Assembly (NCBI RefSeq): GCF_005473905.2
Contig: NZ_CP061336.1
Location: 2,100,501 to 2,164,500, forward strand
DNA: 64,000 nt
Origin: Ruminiclostridium herbifermentans
GTDB taxonomy: Bacteria; Bacillota; Clostridia; Acetivibrionales; DSM-1351
Direction: 5' to 3'
The translations under genes and the position numbers were made by a program. Under the pieces are notes generated by a model. The model was given only the letters and a program-made list of their open reading frames with translations. It was not told the origin of the DNA and searched no databases. Position 1 is the stretch's first letter. Each line of letters begins with the position of its first letter. Shown here piece by piece: positions 1,022-45,968 of this stretch.

Positions 1022-1562
1022 ATTAACCTCCATGCCATATATTGCACTCACGTACTATTTCAATAAAACATTGGTATATAGAAAATGTTATTTTTTCAAC
1101 CCATTTACTCAAAAATGCACAATGCCAGCACTAACTTTAATTTCGAGTTGTAAAGTATTTTGCTGGTGCTAACAGCAATGAAAAAATAAGTGAAAAGACA
1201 CTTGTGGCTTTACTCTACTCAAAAAAGCACAATGCTGTCACTAACTTTGTTCTCGAGATGTAAAGCATATTTATTATACAGTTTAAAAGCCGTTATGAAA
1301 AGAAGCTGGAAGAACAATATTATTAAGTTATTTCAATTGAGTTATTTCAGCATCAATAGTCATATTTGATTTTTTCTTAATAATGTGATAATTTATAAAA
1401 CTGCAGAAAATATAAAGATAAAATATGGTTATATACTTGGCAATGGTATATAATGCTTATAGGAAAAATGCTCAACATTAAAATGGTTTAATTATTATAA
1501 TTTTCGATATAAATTTAAGTATGGGCAAAGCAAAAACTAATAGAAAAAGAGGATTGTATTAA
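1022..1562. other. intergenic region with two direct repeats
   Basis: This is the divergent gap between the pseudouridine synthase and the PLP enzyme. It holds two 55-bp direct repeats at 1104-1158 and 1214-1268, about 82% identical by eye. Both begin with an ACTCAAAAA-type run and contain GCACAATGC, CACTAAC and TCGAG. Between them lies ACACTTGTGGCTTT, the core of a dispersed repeat seen again near 23.5 kb and 33.9-34.3 kb. The rest is AT-rich and shows no gene. Confidence 0.7.
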
Positions 1563-21722: not shown

Positions 21723-23420
21723 ATGAAAAAACAAGCAAAGATTATTACGTTTTTAGTTTTGATTAGTATACTGCTTAGTGCATGTTCTTTAAATAAAAAA
21801 GTTGAAATTGATAATGATAATGATGTTTATGAAGATAAATATGAAGTTATTGATAAGGGACCTGTAAAGGGCGGAACAGTTAAATTGTTTACAACTCCAA
21901 TAGATACACTGAATCCTATCTTGACTAACAATATGTATGTACAGGATTTTCTTGGGCTAATATTTGAAGGCTTATATAAGCTTGACCATACAGGACAACC
22001 TGTTCCAGTCTTAGCTAAAAGTTCATTATTATCTGCAGATGGATTAACGTTGACAGTTTTTCTAAAAGATAATATTAAGTGGCATGATAAGATGTCATTT
22101 AAGCCTGAGGATGTTGTTTTTACAATAAATACAATAATGGATGCTAAGAATAACAGCATCTATTTGAAAAATGTGAAAAACATTGCGTCTGTTGATGTTG
22201 GGAATTCCAACTCAGTTATAATAAAGCTTAAGCACCCATATTCATTTATTAAAAATGAATTAGTTTTTCCTATTATTCCTGCGCATCACTTTCTTAATGA
22301 GAAGATTAGCGACAAAAACTCAGAAAAGAATCTATTGCCTATTGGGACAGGTCCTTACAGTTTTATTTCCTATGACCCCAAAACATCTATAAAACTAAGG
22401 CAAAATGAACAGTGGTGGTATTCTACTGGACTTAATGATAATGTTGATACAACGGCTGAAAAGGTTAATGCTAAAGAAAATTATTCTGTATTGCCGCCTT
22501 ATATTTCTAAAGTGGAAATAAAGATATTTAAAAATTCTAGTACTGCATTTAATTCATTTCAAACTAGGGATATTGATGCTATACCTGCTAGTTACAGTGA
22601 ATATAGAAAATATATAGGGCGAACAGATATTGTATTAAAGAGATTTGTTGGCAGGAATTATGAGTTTTTATCTTTAAATCTTCATAAGGGTCCGTTTGCT
22701 GATAAACGTGTTAGAAATGCAATTAATTTAATGATTAATAAAAAACAGCTAATAGATTCTTCAGCTATGGGTATTGCAGTGGCAGCTGAAATACCAGTAA
22801 TGCCTAGTTCATGGGTATACCAACTGGTGGATTTTGAACATGATAATGATATAGAAAAAGCAACAGATTTGCTTGAACAAAGTGGATATGTATTTAATTC
22901 TGAGATTAACAAATATGTTAAGAAGACTACGAAACAACCATTGTCAATAAAGCTTATTGTTAATGATGATAACAATCTTAGGAATACAGTGGCTAAAGAA
23001 ATTGCTTCTCAATTGAATAAAAATGGAATTAGTGTTGAGGTATCAAAAATTCCTTGGGAAAGTGTTCAAAAAACCATAAAGACAGGCAATTATGATATGG
23101 CACTAATGGGATATAGAATTTCATCTATTCCTGATTTGTCCTTTGCATATTCTACTGATGAAATTAACAGTGGATTGAATGTTGCAGGCTACAGCAATCC
23201 TAACGTGGATAATATTCTTAAAAGCATATTAATTGACAATAATATAGAATCTCAAAAAGCTAGCTATATCAATCTAATTAATGTAATATCAGAGGATAGA
23301 CCGTATATAGGTTTATTCTTCCTAAATGAGAGTGTTATGTATAACAAGAGTGTTAGAGGGGCAATAAACCCTTATGTGTGGGATAAGTATAATAATATTT
23401 CGAAATGGTATAAACCCTAA
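21723..23420 (+). CDS. ABC transporter peptide-binding lipoprotein (SBP family 5), orphan
   Basis: A 565-aa extracellular solute-binding protein of the oligopeptide/nickel class. It starts with a lipoprotein signal (LLSACSLN, lipid-modified Cys at about 21). A GGTVKLFTTPIDTLNPIL-type beginning of the mature domain and LSADGLTLTVFLKDNIKWHD are typical of the family. No permease or ATPase gene is near, so it is either an orphan receptor or works with a transporter elsewhere. GGAGAAGGA precedes the ATG. Confidence 0.88.
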   Translation: MKKQAKIITFLVLISILLSACSLNKKVEIDNDNDVYEDKYEVIDKGPVKGGTVKLFTTPIDTLNPILTNNMYVQDFLGLIFEGLYKLDHTGQPVPVLAKSSLLSADGLTLTVFLKDNIKWHDKMSFKPEDVVFTINTIMDAKNNSIYLKNVKNIASVDVGNSNSVIIKLKHPYSFIKNELVFPIIPAHHFLNEKISDKNSEKNLLPIGTGPYSFISYDPKTSIKLRQNEQWWYSTGLNDNVDTTAEKVNAKENYSVLPPYISKVEIKIFKNSSTAFNSFQTRDIDAIPASYSEYRKYIGRTDIVLKRFVGRNYEFLSLNLHKGPFADKRVRNAINLMINKKQLIDSSAMGIAVAAEIPVMPSSWVYQLVDFEHDNDIEKATDLLEQSGYVFNSEINKYVKKTTKQPLSIKLIVNDDNNLRNTVAKEIASQLNKNGISVEVSKIPWESVQKTIKTGNYDMALMGYRISSIPDLSFAYSTDEINSGLNVAGYSNPNVDNILKSILIDNNIESQKASYINLINVISEDRPYIGLFFLNESVMYNKSVRGAINPYVWDKYNNISKWYKP

Positions 23421-23743
23421 GATAAATATGTTTTTCAAACATATTTATTTTAGAGTAGCAAAAATCCAAAGGCTTTTTGACGGTTTGAGTTGTGAAAACA
23501 AGGTGCTTTTTGAGCCACAAAAACCACAAGTGTTTTTTTTGCAGTGTTGCTGTTGTATAAACATATCTTTACGGTAGCAAAAGCCTTGGCTTTTTAAAGG
23601 TATAGGTGATTGTGTAATAGAGTTTATTTTGTTATTGTGTAGGCAAGTGGAATTGCACAAAAATGCAGTTAGACTTAGTTGTACAAAGGTCTGTACGATA
23701 GATAATTTATATTTTATGCCGAGAGTTGGCGTGGGAGGTTTTT
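23421..23743. other. repeat-rich gap upstream of lspA
   Basis: This gap holds a dispersed-repeat element at 23489-23562 and two imperfect copies of a GTAGCAAAAnCCnnnGGCTTTTT motif, at about 23455 and 23573. I see no gene here. Confidence 0.6.
23489..23562 (-). repeat. dispersed short repeat element, family 1 (copy near lspA)
   Basis: A 74-bp element bounded by GTTGTGAAAAC and GTTGTATAAAC-type ends. Read on the minus strand it contains ACACTTGTGG followed by CTCAAAAAGCAC. The same order of motifs occurs at 1104-1268, 33844-33916 and 34263-34317. Confidence 0.6.
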
Positions 23744-33600: not shown

Positions 33601-33827
33601 CAAATATTTTGGATTTGATTCAATCAGGTAAAATAGGTTTAATAATCAATACTCCTACAAAGGGTAGAAAGCCTGATAGAGATGGCTTCAAGATAAGAAG
33701 AAAGGCAGTTGAAATGTCAATACCATGCTTAACTTCACTTGATACAGCAAATGCAATATTAAAGTGCTTGAAGCTGGGTAAAACTTTGGGAGAACTAGAT
33801 GTGTTGAACTTGAGTATTTTTGAGTAA
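30615..33827 (+). CDS. carB: carbamoyl-phosphate synthase large subunit
   Basis: Makes carbamoyl phosphate from bicarbonate, ammonia and two ATP. At 1070 aa it has the expected two homologous ATP-grasp halves, each starting with a [22 protein letters not shown] motif. A C-terminal allosteric MGS-like domain (from about 935) includes [13 protein letters not shown]. The sequence appears intact. It ends the first pyr block; a 522-base repeat-rich gap separates it from pyrK. Confidence 0.97.
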
Positions 33828-33843
33828 CAGCTTGAAAAAGCTA

Positions 33844-33916
33844 GTTTATACAAACATTGTGCTATTTCGAATATCAAAAGCCACAAGTTTTTTACCAGTG
33901 TGGTAGTTGTGTAAAC
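33844..33916 (-). repeat. dispersed short repeat element, family 1 (copy after carB)
   Basis: A 73-bp element with inverted ends, GTTTATACAAAC on the left and GTTGTGTAAAC on the right. On the minus strand it contains ACTTGTGGCTTTT and AGCACAATG, as in the copies near 1.2 and 23.5 kb. Confidence 0.65.
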
Positions 33917-33985: not shown

Positions 33986-34262
33986 CACGAATTGATGCTG
34001 AAATAGTTATGGTTAATAACAAGCACTTCTGCCGAATTTTTTACAAAGACATCCTGTCTTGGGGGCAATGCTCGCAGCCACTAACTTCTGATGTGTAGGG
34101 TGCAATACTTGTTCTTCACCTAATATTTCTAGCATCAATTTCTAACTAAATTTCGCAAGTAGATATATATTACTGCTTAGTACTTTTTCATGCAATAATG
34201 CATCGGTATGCAGAAAGTGTTGTTTTGTATTAGCTACGTTAAAATTAGTTTGGGTGATTTGT

Positions 34263-34317
34263 ACTAACATAGTGCATTTTCAAGCCACAAAATGCAAGTG
34301 CTTTGCCAGTGTTAGTG
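34263..34317 (-). repeat. dispersed short repeat element, family 1 (diverged copy upstream of pyrK)
   Basis: The ends ACTAACA and TGTTAGT form an inverted pair. The interior on the minus strand has GCACTTG, TGTGGCTTG and AAAATGCAC in the same order as the other copies. Confidence 0.5.
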
Positions 34318-34349
34318 GAGAATTATAAAAGAGGAGGCGGAGGATAATA

Positions 34350-41965: not shown

Positions 41966-42463
41966 ATGATGATGACATGCAAAATTAAAAGTGCTATTAC
42001 AATAGTCAGTGTCTTTTTAACGTTACTTACTGGCTGCGCATCAGATCCTGTAGCAGATGATTTAACATATTATATGAATAATCAAATGCAAGCTGTATCA
42101 AAAATCCAAAACACATATTTAACCTTATTGAATGATATTAGTAACTCTGAAGATTCTGATATCCAAACTGTGATTACTAAAATACAGGAGGAAGTGCTTC
42201 CTAGTTCAGATAATTTAATTGCAGAGGCTAAGAAAATAGTTCCTGCAACACAAGAGGTAAGAAATCTTCACAATAAGTATATATCAGCTATGACAAAGCA
42301 AAAAAATGGATTAGCTATAATACTTGACGGACTTAAAAATAGCAACAATGAAACTGTATCTGCTGGCAGTAAAATAATTACAGAAGCTAATTCCGAATAT
42401 GCTTTATTCATAAAAGAACTGAATGCTCTTGCAAAAGCCCATGGGTTGGAAGTTCAGAATTAA
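41966..42463 (+). CDS. small helical lipoprotein of unknown function
   Basis: A 165-aa protein with a lipoprotein signal (LLTGCASDP; lipid-modified Cys at about 24), followed by an all-helical region without further motifs. Three ATG codons follow each other after GGAGG; the second (41969) or third (41972) has the better spacing, so the true start may be one or two codons later. It is surface-exposed by inference. It is divergent from the DUF486 gene and followed by a strong terminator. Confidence 0.75.
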   Translation: MMMTCKIKSAITIVSVFLTLLTGCASDPVADDLTYYMNNQMQAVSKIQNTYLTLLNDISNSEDSDIQTVITKIQEEVLPSSDNLIAEAKKIVPATQEVRNLHNKYISAMTKQKNGLAIILDGLKNSNNETVSAGSKIITEANSEYALFIKELNALAKAHGLEVQN

Positions 42464-42570
42464 TTTTCAATATATTATTTTAACTTAATAAAAATTTAAC
42501 TTTATAAAAATTAAAATAAATTTTATCAAAAAGCCTATTTGGGCAAGCAAACTTAATATTTTTTCTATCA

Positions 42571-42632
42571 ATAATTGCATCAATTAGTAATGATTTATGT
42601 ATCATCACTAATTAATGCAATTATTTTTTTCA
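42571..42632 (+). terminator. strong intrinsic terminator after the lipoprotein gene
   Basis: The long imperfect stem ATAATTGCAT-AATTAGT-ATGAT pairs with ATCAT-ACTAATT-ATGCAATTAT and is followed by seven T's. Confidence 0.88.
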
Positions 42633-42708
42633 ATTTTCTAATTATTTATTTAACATATATATTTTTAAGTGCTTAGAAGATTATATAAAAATATACCAAA
42701 TAATGTAT

Positions 42709-42792
42709 TTGTCGAAAATGTATTAAATATTGTGTCAAAAACATATATAAAATGTCGAAAAGATATTGATAAAAAGTCGAATATGGTATAAT
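42709..42792 (+). promoter_or_regulatory. putative promoter with a cluster of Spo0A-box-like sites
   Basis: TTGTCGAAAA (42709-42718), TGTCGAA (42753-42759) and a degenerate AGTCGAA (42775-42781) match the 0A box. They surround a possible TTGATA (42766) and TATAAT (42787-42792) pair with a 15-base spacer. The transcript would run through the tandem repeats into the GGDEF-EAL gene about 930 bases downstream. Binding by Spo0A is inferred. Confidence 0.5.
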
Positions 42793-42911
42793 ATTAGTAT
42801 AGATAAATCAATGATATGAATTAATTAGCTATTTATATATTTTTTATAATAGACGCAATTAATACCTATACTAATGAGAAAAGTCGATAGAGATAAGATT
42901 GACATTATACT

Positions 42912-43690
42912 AATTGTATTTAAAGAAATCTAATACCTAATAATAAGGATAGTATTATCAAAAGTTGGATAAGCTTTAGAGACTAGTTGAAATTAATATA
43001 TTTAATTAGTAAAGAACAAAAGATAAAACATCATTAATAGTGAGTACAGAAAAACTCTAAAAACAAGCTTAATTAACGAATTTAAATAGCAAAAAACAAA
43101 AGATACGACATCAATAGTGTGGACGAATAAGTTCTAGAAAAAAACTTATTAAACCTATTTAAATAATAAAAACAAAAGATAAAAACATCATTAATAGTTG
43201 GTGCAGAAAAACTCAAAAAACAAACTTAATTAACGAATTTAAAATAGCAAAAACAAAAGATAAAAATATCAATAGTGGGTATAGCAAAACTCTAAAAAAT
43301 AAACTTAATTAACGAATTTAAATAGCAAAAGAACGAAAGATAAAATCATCAAGAGAGGAACGAATAAGCACTAAAAACTAACTTAATTAGCGGATTTAAA
43401 TAGCAAAAACAAAAGATAAGATCATCAATAGTTGGGGACAGATAACTCCAGAAACTAGCTGTAATTAACCGATTCAACTTGCTAAAAATCAAACATAACG
43501 ACATCAAGAGTGATATGGATAAACGCCAGAAACTAACTGTAATTAACCAATTCAATATGCAAAAAAATTAACATAACTACAATAAGGGTGGGACGGATAA
43601 GCTTATAAACTAACTTAATTAACGGATTCAATTAGCAAAAATCGAAAGATGACAGCATCAAGTGTGTGATGAAATGTGTTCGAGTTTTAC
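42912..43690 (+). repeat. ten-unit degenerate tandem repeat, period about 78 bp
   Basis: Units begin at 42912, 42991, 43071, 43148, 43228, 43307, 43385, 43463, 43541 and 43617 (spacings 76-80). The best-kept part is AATTAACGAATTTAAATAGC; after it come CAAAAGATAA, CATCAATAGTG and a GGACGGATAA-like stretch ending in AACTAACTT. No frame is open across it, and the varying spacing argues against coding. The array ends about 40 bases before the start of the GGDEF-EAL gene. I recognise no known repeat or riboswitch class. Confidence 0.9.
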
Positions 43691-43729
43691 TATTGATTGG
43701 ACTATTATAGAAACATGAGGTAAGCAGAT

Positions 43730-45475
43730 ATGAGAGTAAAAATTTTTTCAAAGGTACTTATAGCAGCTTTTACAGTAGCTATTTTAGTTACCATGATGTA
43801 TTTATTTGGTAGCTATATTAATAATCAGGAAAACGCTCGTGTATCAGACAAAAATAGTTCCTTGAATAGAATTTCATTGTTTACTATGGCACCATTTGAG
43901 ACTGATCAAAATGAAATGTCTTTTTTTACTGCAAATAAGGAACAAACTATTAGCATATTTATTTTTGCATCCATTCTAATTGTGATTATTGCAGCTATAG
44001 TGTATAGAAAGAAAACAAAAATTATAAAAGAACAGCTTTTAATTGTAAACGCTGAACTAGCTAGTATGAATAGTAAACTGCAAGAAGTATATAATGAAAT
44101 TAATCTCAAACGGAATGAAGTTAAAGTGATTCAAGAAAATCTAAAGGAGAGCGAGGAAAGATATACTCACCTTGCTCTTCATGATGTATTGACTGGGCTG
44201 CCTAATAGACAAGCGCTTTATGAAAATGCTTCTCAGCTATTTTCAGATTTGCCTGCAAAAAAAGCAGCACTAATACTTATTGATTTGGATAATTTCAAAT
44301 ATATAAATGATACAATGGGACATGATTTTGGAGACGAATTAATAAAGAAAGCAAGTGAAAGATTATTATTAAATATGAATAACAAAGGTATTCTTTATAG
44401 ATTAGGCGGAGATGAATTTGTTATTCTGCAAGCATTAAATGAAAAAGAAGCAGAAAGCTTAATTACAAATATTTTAAATAGCTTTAGAAAAGAGTTTGTA
44501 ATAAAAAGCTGCAATATACATATTAGTCTTAGTATTGGATTAGCAGTGTATCCCGAACATGGAGAGAGTATAAGTAAACTGATGAAAGCTGCAGATATTG
44601 CTATGTATACCTCCAAAGAGAGTGGAAAGAACAGATATGAAATTTATCACGACAGTATGAATGTAGCTTTTAGTGAAAGGATGAACTTAGAAAAATATTT
44701 GTATATAGCAATGGAAAAACGAGAATTTGAATTATACTATCAACCGCAGTTAGATTTAAATAATAATAGTATAACTGGTCTTGAAGCATTGATAAGATGG
44801 AAAAGCCCAGAATTAGGGAATGTATCTCCAATGGATTTTATAAAGGTTGCAGAAGATACTCATTTAATAATTCCTCTAGGTGAATGGGTATTAATTCAAG
44901 CATGTGAATTCTTAAGTCAATTACATAAAAGCGGAAATCAAAATATGACAATGTCAGTTAATATTTCGCCTATTCAGATTTTACAGGAAGATTTTACTGA
45001 TAAGGTAATAAAAATTCTTAAATATTATAATATTGCTCCAATGTGTCTTGAATTAGAATTAACGGAAACAATTTTAATTGAGTCATTTGAAAATGTTTAT
45101 AAAAAGTTGCAGATGCTTAGTGATATAGGAATACGAATCGCACTTGATGATTTTGGTAAGGGTTATTCATCACTGAATTATTTGAGGCAGCTGCCTATAC
45201 ATACATTAAAGATTGACAAGTGTTTTATAGATAATGTTTCCTTTGAGACTGAAAATAAAACTATTACAAGACATATTATTTCAATGGGTAAGTCAATGGG
45301 ATTGTCTGTTATTGCTGAAGGGGTAGAAGTTCAAGGACAATTAGACTATTTAAAGAAGTATAATTGTGATAAGATGCAGGGATATCTTTTCTCAAGGCCA
45401 TTACCAAAAAGCGAAATAGCAAAATTGGTTAAAGCACCAGGGTTGAAAATAAAGTCCATACAAAGAGGAGCATAG
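43730..45475 (+). CDS. membrane GGDEF-EAL cyclic di-GMP protein
   Basis: A 581-aa protein with two membrane helices (about 9-30 and 73-92) flanking a short outside loop, a coiled linker (about 97-145), then GGDEF and EAL domains. The cyclase motif GGDEF (226-230) is intact; an RxxD inhibitory site just before it is absent. The EAL motif (352-354) and the later ELTET, DDFGKGYSSL, KIDKCFID, IAEGVE and QGYLFSRPL motifs are intact, so both synthesis and breakdown are possible. It follows the tandem-repeat region, with GAGGTAAG as ribosome binding site. Confidence 0.95.
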   Translation: MRVKIFSKVLIAAFTVAILVTMMYLFGSYINNQENARVSDKNSSLNRISLFTMAPFETDQNEMSFFTANKEQTISIFIFASILIVIIAAIVYRKKTKIIKEQLLIVNAELASMNSKLQEVYNEINLKRNEVKVIQENLKESEERYTHLALHDVLTGLPNRQALYENASQLFSDLPAKKAALILIDLDNFKYINDTMGHDFGDELIKKASERLLLNMNNKGILYRLGGDEFVILQALNEKEAESLITNILNSFRKEFVIKSCNIHISLSIGLAVYPEHGESISKLMKAADIAMYTSKESGKNRYEIYHDSMNVAFSERMNLEKYLYIAMEKREFELYYQPQLDLNNNSITGLEALIRWKSPELGNVSPMDFIKVAEDTHLIIPLGEWVLIQACEFLSQLHKSGNQNMTMSVNISPIQILQEDFTDKVIKILKYYNIAPMCLELELTETILIESFENVYKKLQMLSDIGIRIALDDFGKGYSSLNYLRQLPIHTLKIDKCFIDNVSFETENKTITRHIISMGKSMGLSVIAEGVEVQGQLDYLKKYNCDKMQGYLFSRPLPKSEIAKLVKAPGLKIKSIQRGA

Positions 45476-45968
45476 ATTATTTCTATGCTTTATCTATAAA
45501 TTAGGAATTAACTGTTAAAACTTGTTTAAAAATAAATTGAATATTATTTTGCAATATAAGAAATATAATTATTTGTTTATGTAGATAATAATTCTAAATA
45601 AACTAATTACTCAAACTTCACAGTTGGATATACTGATTGAAACTGAATAATATCAGTTTTGGCAACATTATCAAATTAAATGTAAATATTTATATAATAA
45701 GTTTGCTGCATAAAAGGCCTTTGATAATCTAAAGTATAGATCTGCTTTTCATTTGAAAGTTTGGGTTATAAATAATTGTATAAATTAGTTGTATGAAAAG
45801 TTTGCATACGCAATTTCACCGAACTAATTAAATTTTATGTATAAAGTTTAAGTAATATAGCAGCTAATGTTTAAAATTATAAATATAAGGAAACTTTTAA
45901 ATATGAGTATTAATAATTGATAGGCAAATAAAATGCATAAGTGTAATATAAAAAAACGAGGTGATAGA
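45476..45968. other. intergenic region, little seen
   Basis: A short hairpin, GCATAGA-TTATT-TCTATGC, with a TTTATC tail overlaps the stop of the GGDEF-EAL gene and may be a weak terminator. The rest is AT-rich without a gene or recognised element. Confidence 0.45.

What the first reader, a model, noticed from the sequence alone, without database searches (positions are those of the whole stretch)
42912..43690. Ten-unit ~78-bp non-coding tandem array in front of a GGDEF-EAL gene
The units keep a steady 76-80 bp period but have diverged. They keep a conserved AT-rich block plus an AGTG/GGAC-like block and contain no long open frame. The array ends about 40 bases before a cyclic di-GMP enzyme and starts about 120 bases after a putative promoter, so it would form a roughly 0.9-kb structured leader. 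Such arrays could be repeated protein- or RNA-binding sites, a chain of small RNA units or a decaying selfish repeat. I know of no named class that fits. This is the best candidate in the window for an undescribed element.
Basis: partly seen in the sequence, partly recalled or inferred. Interest (0 to 1): 0.75.

Follow-up and report, generated by a model that had tools for sequence, protein, structure and literature searches.

The report
Decaying minisatellite in a gene leader
A stretch of about nine worn 78-base tandem repeats has grown between the promoter and the start of a cyclic-di-GMP enzyme gene in one clostridial species; it looks like an ordinary, slowly decaying local repeat, not a new RNA element.

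Summary
The tandem array is real: eight full ~78-bp units (43015-43640, 68-94% identical pairwise), one decayed unit (42944-43013) and a third of one more (43643-43668). It lies between a conserved promoter with four Spo0A-box-like sites (-10 at 42787) and a GGDEF-EAL gene (ATG 43730), so the gene probably has a ~0.93-kb leader. The sister species G003 has the same upstream gene, promoter, ribosome-binding region and gene but no array: 96 bp from -10 to ATG instead of 937. Model searches found no significant relative of the unit elsewhere in this genome, in 10 congeners, in 58 genomes of the order or in a 391-genome class sample (each tally includes this genome; not every candidate was scored). 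Units show no consensus RNA structure, no excess folding stability and no detectable constrained block; neighbouring units are more alike. An 800-kb sample of the same genome holds nine other long intergenic array loci beside unrelated genes; four congeners show three in 1,600 kb. At both of the two checked, G003 again lacks the array. Best reading: a local minisatellite grown by slippage or recombination inside a 5' leader, now decaying, with at most a modest effect on expression. Nothing found ties it to c-di-GMP or to a structured RNA.

The parts
41966..42463 (+). Upstream gene, 165-aa putative lipoprotein; the 5' flank shared with G003
   Evidence: ORF; 67% DNA identity over 481 bp with G003; no Pfam match at E 0.001
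42575..42620 (.). 20-pair terminator-like hairpin; the scan reported it on the - strand; on the + strand it is also followed by a T run (read from the sequence), so it may end the upstream transcript
   Evidence: + strand T run
42710..42781 (+). Four Spo0A-box-like sites: 42710 TGTCGAA, 42733 TGTCAAA, 42753 TGTCGAA, 42775 AGTCGAA
   Evidence: 0A-box core TGTCGAA from PMC3485338 (passages); in G003 three counterparts match as box words (TGTCGAA, TGTCGAA, AGTCGAA) and the fourth reads AGTCCAA
42787..42792 (+). Putative -10 (TATAAT); TATAAA at the same place in G003
42793..42943 (+). Unique AT-rich sequence between promoter and array; no convincing match in the G003 locus
42944..43013 (+). Decayed unit U0
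   Evidence: 20.7 bits, E 1.7e-6; mean identity to the eight units 0.65, shuffled U0 0.49 +/- 0.05, best of 100 shuffles 0.73
43015..43640 (+). Eight full units U1-U8, starting at 43015, 43095, 43171, 43252, 43332, 43408, 43487, 43565 (76-81 bp)
43643..43668 (+). Partial unit U9 (model positions 3-28 only)
   Evidence: 8.6 bits, E 0.01
43683..43729 (+). Pre-start segment with GAGGTAA at 43717, conserved in G003: right flank of the species-specific stretch
43730..45475 (+). GGDEF-EAL gene, 581 aa
   Evidence: ortholog in G003 69% identical over residues 134-581

Best explanation
It is a local minisatellite. A ~78-bp stretch of leader DNA was duplicated head-to-tail (slippage or recombination between neighbouring copies) after this species split from its sister G003, grew to about nine or ten copies, and is now decaying by point mutation and small indels, most at its two ends. 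Shown: the array, its absence in G003, no significant relatives where searched, no structure, no detectable constraint, neighbour similarity, and other intergenic arrays in the same genome. Inferred: the duplication mechanism, and that RNA polymerase starting at the Spo0A-box promoter copies the array as an A-rich, unstructured ~0.93-kb leader that leaves the ribosome-binding site intact. Any effect on the c-di-GMP gene would then be one of leader length (transcript decay, chance of termination, delay) and not of a specific signal.
For: Array-less sister locus with conserved flanks. In all nine other congeners the ortholog also has a TATAAT-like -10 roughly 70-110 bp before its start (read by eye), so the short leader looks ancestral. 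Unit at one locus only: own genome and 10 congeners (best hit outside the array E 0.15 in the own genome, 0.098 in a congener); 1 of 58 genomes of the order and 1 of 391 in a class sample, the one being this genome; no match in plasmids or phages, no exact match of one 27-base pattern in viral contigs. No pairs in the consensus fold; 0 of 32 unit windows with z < -2, mean z 0.26. No significant rate heterogeneity or clustering of conserved columns. Neighbouring units more alike: Mantel r 0.41, p 0.01 for 9 units; r 0.36, p 0.034 for 8. End units most decayed: identity to the consensus 0.66 (U0) and 0.53 (U9, counted over a full unit length) against 0.75-0.90 for U1-U8. Same genome, 800-kb sample: nine intergenic loci with long arrays, five of them with units that have no or only marginal matches elsewhere in the sample; two of two checked lack the array in G003 (argR-recN gap ~100 vs 963 bp; the L140 gap ~350 vs 1,481 bp).
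Against: Strain variation in copy number could not be seen (one genome per species). The constraint test has only 62% power, and a third of the simulations with constraint fell at or below the observed value. ATG is scarcer in the array than in shuffles (3 vs 8.9, p 0.004) and stops commoner (73 vs 63.5, p 0.015), which could mean selection against upstream starts, though units share ancestry and are not independent. The first DNA search gave short weak matches to array letters in four other genomes (G024, G025, G052, G008; 33-99 bp, E 1e-4 to 8e-4), which the model searches did not bear out. Model searches scored only part of the first-look candidates (150, 82 and 12 per genome). U1 and U3 (94%) are more alike than U2 between them to either, so growth was not strictly unit by unit, and U1, near the 5' end, is the best-preserved unit, so decay is not a smooth gradient. 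Counting only the five arrays without dispersed relatives, the excess over congeners (5 in 800 kb against 3 in 1,600 kb) is not compelling.
Confidence: 0.77

Rival explanations
1. Repeated binding sites: each unit holds a site for a DNA- or RNA-binding protein (Spo0A, CsrA or an unknown regulator), and copy number titrates it or tunes the c-di-GMP gene.
For: Place between a regulated-looking promoter and a signalling gene; TTAATTAAC recurs 4 times (0.02 expected in shuffles), which repetition alone explains; two csrA matches in the genome; short VNTRs in the clbR leader of E. coli change expression about two-fold (PMC7364221, passages).
Against: 0A-like boxes not enriched in the array (1 vs 1.5 expected), GGA 10 vs 8.0 and A-N-GGA 4 vs 4.0; no block shown to evolve slower than the rest; absent from the sister species, which keeps the promoter.
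Confidence: 0.12
2. A chain of small structured RNA units, for example decayed c-di-GMP-I (GEMM-I) riboswitch copies sensing the enzyme's own product.
For: Units loosely recall GEMM-I to the eye (GGGACG, AAGC, CTA, GGA); the genome has three GEMM-I riboswitches over the family cut-off elsewhere.
Against: No Rfam match to GEMM-I at E 10. A model built from 13 genus riboswitches gives at best 8.6 bits in the array, below 12.2 bits at the end of the coding gene, filters off. No consensus pairs; units no more stable than shuffles.
Confidence: 0.02
3. Remnant of a selfish or mobile element that arrived as a tandem block.
For: Species-specific block with conserved flanks; the genome also carries a dispersed repeat family, some copies of it tandem.
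Against: No second place with the unit in the genome, no match in plasmid or phage records or, for one exact pattern, viral contigs; no inverted repeats of 14 bp or more flanking the array; no coding frame over it; no match to the dispersed family.
Confidence: 0.08

Closest known systems
Bacterial minisatellites / VNTR loci in intergenic DNA
   Same: Head-to-tail units, local, species-specific, neighbours more alike, decaying; minisatellites are treated as one class of small variable segments in bacterial genomes (PMC2884548, passages seen).
   Different: Units more diverged (68-94%) than the 90% identity which that paper used as its cut-off; copy-number variation between strains not testable here.
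clbR 5'-leader VNTR of E. coli (PMC7364221)
   Same: A tandem repeat inside the untranslated 5' region of a regulated gene, behind its promoter; there 20 repeats gave two-fold higher reporter output than 5 (passages seen).
   Different: 8-bp units, 2-20 copies, variable among strains; here 78-bp diverged units, no expression data.
c-di-GMP-I (GEMM-I) riboswitch, RF01051
   Same: Unit of similar length before a c-di-GMP gene; a few short words in common.
   Different: No match by covariance model, no structure.
Minisatellite inside a MITE of Porphyromonas gingivalis (PMC4596501; search listing with start of abstract only)
   Same: A bacterial minisatellite.
   Different: That one sits inside a transposable element; this one is single-locus without flanking inverted repeats of 14 bp or more.

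Membership tests
Bacterial minisatellite (VNTR-type locus) | Head-to-tail array of units longer than ~10 bp | tested here: met
   TRF period 78, 8.5 copies; model matches
Bacterial minisatellite (VNTR-type locus) | Locally grown: unit without relatives elsewhere, array absent from the orthologous site of a relative | tested here: met
   (searches scored part of the candidates); G003 site without array
Bacterial minisatellite (VNTR-type locus) | Neighbouring units more alike than distant ones | tested here: met
   Mantel r 0.41, p 0.01 for 9 units; r 0.36, p 0.034 for 8 units
Bacterial minisatellite (VNTR-type locus) | Copy number differs between strains | not testable with these tools
   one genome per species is held
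Structured RNA leader or RNA unit chain | Consensus secondary structure with covariation | tested here: not met
   0 predicted pairs; fold z-scores near 0
c-di-GMP-I riboswitch RF01051 | Match to the family model | tested here: not met
   no hit at E <= 10; 8.6 bits with a genus model, less than a hit at the end of the CDS
CRISPR array | Constant repeats separated by unique spacers | tested here: not met
   differences are spread along the whole unit, no constant block
MITE / mobile element | Dispersed copies and terminal inverted repeats | tested here: not met
   single locus; the two inverted repeats found do not flank the array
Spo0A-controlled promoter (of the gene, not the array) | TGTCGAA boxes near the -35/-10 region, kept in a relative | tested here: met
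   four boxes with at most one mismatch; three as box words in G003; none in the ~460 bp before the ortholog in the other nine congeners; binding itself not testable

The most novel reading that the evidence does not exclude
The array is a tunable leader: changes in unit number lengthen or shorten a Spo0A-controlled ~0.93-kb leader and so vary c-di-GMP enzyme output between cells or strains, in a species whose intergenic DNA is generally prone to growing tandem arrays (nine loci in an 800-kb sample against three in 1,600 kb of four congeners).
Probability: 0.1. Interest if true: 0.5.

Novelty: new member of a known kind. Interest (0 to 1): 0.22.

Why it matters
The main result is negative: the window's best-looking candidate for an undescribed element is a local repeat without structure, known relatives or detectable constraint. 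Two things keep some value. The repeat sits between a conserved Spo0A-type promoter and a c-di-GMP enzyme, so a leader ten times longer than the sister's is a natural test of whether leader length matters. And the genome as a whole seems to hold more intergenic tandem arrays than its relatives do.

Tried and rejected
GEMM-I riboswitch ancestry: suggested by eye, rejected by Rfam and by a model built from 13 genus riboswitches. CsrA or Spo0A sites inside the array: not enriched. Coding repeat: most unit lengths are not multiples of three (two of eight, 81 and 78, are) and stops abound. Conserved blocks inside the unit: not supported. Loss of mismatch repair or SbcCD as a cause of the genome's arrays: mutS1 and sbcD are over the cut-off in 11 of 11 genus genomes. 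Weak BLAST matches of the unit in the samples of G003, G002, G007 and G009 are equalled or beaten by 19, 84, 97 and 6 of 100 shuffles. Short matches to array letters in four relatives in the first DNA search were not borne out by the model. Orthologs in the other nine congeners have a different N-terminus (open frames of 853-867 aa); my first look at their upstream sides was on the wrong side for the four loci on the - strand (L017-L020) and was redone. A global MAFFT alignment of the G000 and G003 leaders misplaced the insertion; local BLAST is the basis for the statement on flanks. RNAalifold on the dispersed family found no pairs, I think because MAFFT misaligned the second stem.

Rows dropped before counts: in the array census, rows with period under 30, score under 150 or overlap with a better row were left out, and 'non-coding' means an open frame over less than 75% of the array (24 arrays, 15 non-coding, 11 of these with score 300 or more, in G000). 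L202 was then left out of the nine loci because long frames cover it, and the two L195 arrays were counted as one place; L201 10045 fell to the open-frame rule (0.78). The three control loci are L209 961-1389, L229 (two rows counted as one) and L240; whether these are coding was not settled, and they were kept, which works against my reading.

Full report
What is there. Tandem Repeats Finder places an array with period 78 (or 157) at 43000-43661. A sequence-only model built from the eight clear units scores U1-U8 (43015-43640) at 54-63 bits, finds a decayed unit at 42944-43013 (20.7 bits, E 1.7e-6) and the first third of another at 43643-43668 (8.6 bits, E 0.01), and otherwise hits of 4.9 bits or less in 42400-45600. 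So the array is 8 full units + 1 decayed + 1/3, not ten. Pairwise identity of U1-U8 is 68-94%.

Where it sits. Upstream are a 165-aa putative lipoprotein gene and a terminator-like hairpin (42575-42620), then four sites matching TGTCGAA with at most one mismatch (42710, 42733, 42753, 42775), the core of the Spo0A box (PMC3485338, passages), and TATAAT at 42787. Downstream are GAGGTAA at 43717 and the ATG of a 581-aa GGDEF-EAL protein at 43730. The -10 to ATG distance is 937 bp. The promoter is a reading of the sequence; the consensus scan found no more promoter-like sites in this region than shuffles do (9 vs 10.2).

The sister species. A search of 60 genomes (this one included) found in G003 a match to the promoter and, about 60 bp further on, a match to the pre-start region. 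Reading that locus and comparing it shows the same upstream gene (67% over 481 bp), the same promoter (81% over 63 bp), the same pre-start region (73% over 123 bp) and the orthologous gene (69% over residues 134-581), with 96 bp from -10 to ATG. The array and about 150 bp of unique sequence before it are therefore extra in this species, or were lost in G003. In the other nine congeners the ortholog has a different N-terminus and no box words in the ~460 bp before it, but in all nine a TATAAT-like -10 lies roughly 70-110 bp before the start (read by eye), so the short leader looks ancestral.

Relatives. The array occurs at one locus of the own genome. The model finds nothing else significant in 11 genus genomes (best other hit in the own genome E 0.15, best in a congener 0.098), in 58 genomes of the order or in 391 of the class. 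These searches scored 150, 82 and 12 first-look candidates per genome, with stricter filters in the last two, so weak relatives could be missed. The first, plain DNA search gave short matches to array letters in G024, G025, G052 and G008 (E 1e-4 to 8e-4), which I take for chance in A-rich DNA since the model did not confirm them. Plasmid and phage records gave no match, and one exact 27-base pattern none in viral contigs.

RNA structure. RNAalifold predicts no pair on the unit alignment. Single units fold like shuffles (z -0.93 to 1.18), and in four registers 0 of 32 windows had z < -2 (mean 0.26). The whole leader has z = 0.07 (20 shuffles). Rfam gives one trivial sub-threshold match. A riboswitch origin, which the letters suggest to the eye, fails with a model of 13 genus GEMM-I riboswitches: 8.6 bits at best inside the array, 12.2 bits at the end of the coding gene.

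Constraint. Adding rate variation to the substitution model gains almost nothing (LRT 1.09; 95% of uniform simulations lie below 1.45), and conserved columns are not clustered (p 0.23 and 0.36). Simulation gives 62% power to see 30 of 74 sites at one fifth of the rate, and a third of such simulations fell at or below the observed value, so mild or local constraint is not excluded. Candidate sites (0A boxes, GGA) are not enriched; ATG is scarcer than in shuffles (3 vs 8.9, p 0.004) and stops commoner (73 vs 63.5, p 0.015), but the units are copies of one another, so these p-values overstate.

How it grew. Neighbouring units resemble each other more (Mantel r 0.41, p 0.01 with U0; r 0.36, p 0.034 without), and the end units are the most decayed, as expected of an array grown by slippage or recombination between neighbours and no longer homogenised at its edges. 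U1 and U3 share 94% while U2 between them shares 72-75% with either, so at least one duplication or conversion spanned two units; this would also explain the 157-bp period. U1 is the best-preserved unit (0.90), so the gradient is not smooth.

The genome around it. In an 800-kb sample of the same genome (40 x 20 kb) 24 arrays pass the filters, 15 of them non-coding, 11 of these with TRF score of at least 300. After leaving out L202 (covered by long frames) and merging the two L195 arrays these are nine intergenic loci, for example 65 bp x 17 next to L140 16247-17623 and 65 bp x 9 between argR-like and recN-like genes (gene names recalled from the translations). Samples of 400 kb each from G003, G002, G007 and G009 gave 0, 0, 1 and 3 rows, that is 3 loci in 1,600 kb; 9 against 3 has a one-sided p of 0.004. 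G003 is a 60-contig draft in which arrays may be collapsed; the other three are single contigs. Of the nine loci, four (L137, two in L194, L195) have units with many matches elsewhere, to a dispersed repeat family; five (L129, L134, L140, L192, L193) have none or one to three marginal ones, and 5 against 3 is not a compelling excess. In two of two checked cases G003 lacks the array: argR-recN gap about 100 bp against 963 bp (about 35 bp in G002, G007 and G009), and the L140 gap about 350 against 1,481 bp (in G002, G007 and G009 the right-hand neighbour of the L140 gap was not found within the fetched stretch). So the window's array is one of several such arrays, and nothing found ties it to c-di-GMP.

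Verdict. A species-specific minisatellite inside the 5' leader of a probably Spo0A-controlled GGDEF-EAL gene, unstructured, A-rich (51% A) and decaying. Leader VNTRs can matter: in the clbR leader of E. coli 20 copies gave two-fold higher reporter output than 5 (PMC7364221, passages). Such an effect is possible here but untested. I searched for papers on repeats in that genus and on intergenic minisatellites and leader VNTRs; going by the titles and abstract starts listed (10 of 16, 0 of 0, 5 of 4,837, 12 of 89 and 12 of 41 papers), none describes this array. The library holds open-licence papers only.

Noticed in passing
window 1070-1159(+), 23407-23491(-), 33820-33909(-), 34233-34319(-); L201 10125-10693, L137 4227-5004, L194 17277-17365, L200 10764-11020 and others: A dispersed repeat family of about 65-90 bp: a terminator-like hairpin (AAAAACnGCTTGCnGTTTTT) followed by a second hairpin (CTCGAAAAT...ATTTTCGAG) with a conserved loop GCACCATGTnTGCAC. 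49 BLAST hits (tandem copies included) in the 864 kb of this genome looked at, in 33 separate places by another query; 3 places in 400 kb of G003, none in the 400-kb samples of G002, G007 and G009. 23 of 47 distinct copies fold with z < -2 (mean -1.74). Stems seem to change together by eye, but RNAalifold on a MAFFT alignment of 19 copies found no pairs. Rfam matches in five 20-kb stretches holding copies were rRNA and tRNA only. Possibly a terminator-linked or MITE-like structured repeat.
   Followed up: partly
L129 7007-7868, L134 8905-9509, L140 17794-18871, L192 3352-3728, L193 11613-12136: Other long intergenic tandem arrays with units without clear relatives; an apparent tendency of this genome, whose sampled G+C is 33% against 37-38% in samples of four congeners.
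   Followed up: partly
window 42710-42792: Cluster of four Spo0A-box-like sites in front of a GGDEF-EAL gene, largely kept in G003; suggests sporulation or stationary-phase control of c-di-GMP in this pair of species. The other nine congeners have orthologs with a different N-terminus and no such box words in the ~460 bp upstream.
   Followed up: partly
L185 5330-5824 and window 41966-42463: Two putative lipoproteins with similar starts (GCGSDPVQDDLINYINNQ / GCASDPVADDLTYYMNNQ), no Pfam match for the window one, each next to a tandem array; probably coincidence.
   Followed up: no
window 42788-42801 / 42906-42919 and 42793-42802 / 42866-42875: Inverted repeats near the expected transcript start could close a hairpin at the 5' end of the leader; by a rough estimate of mine, not a tool result, near what chance gives in such AT-rich DNA. 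The first pair is, the second read by eye.
   Followed up: no
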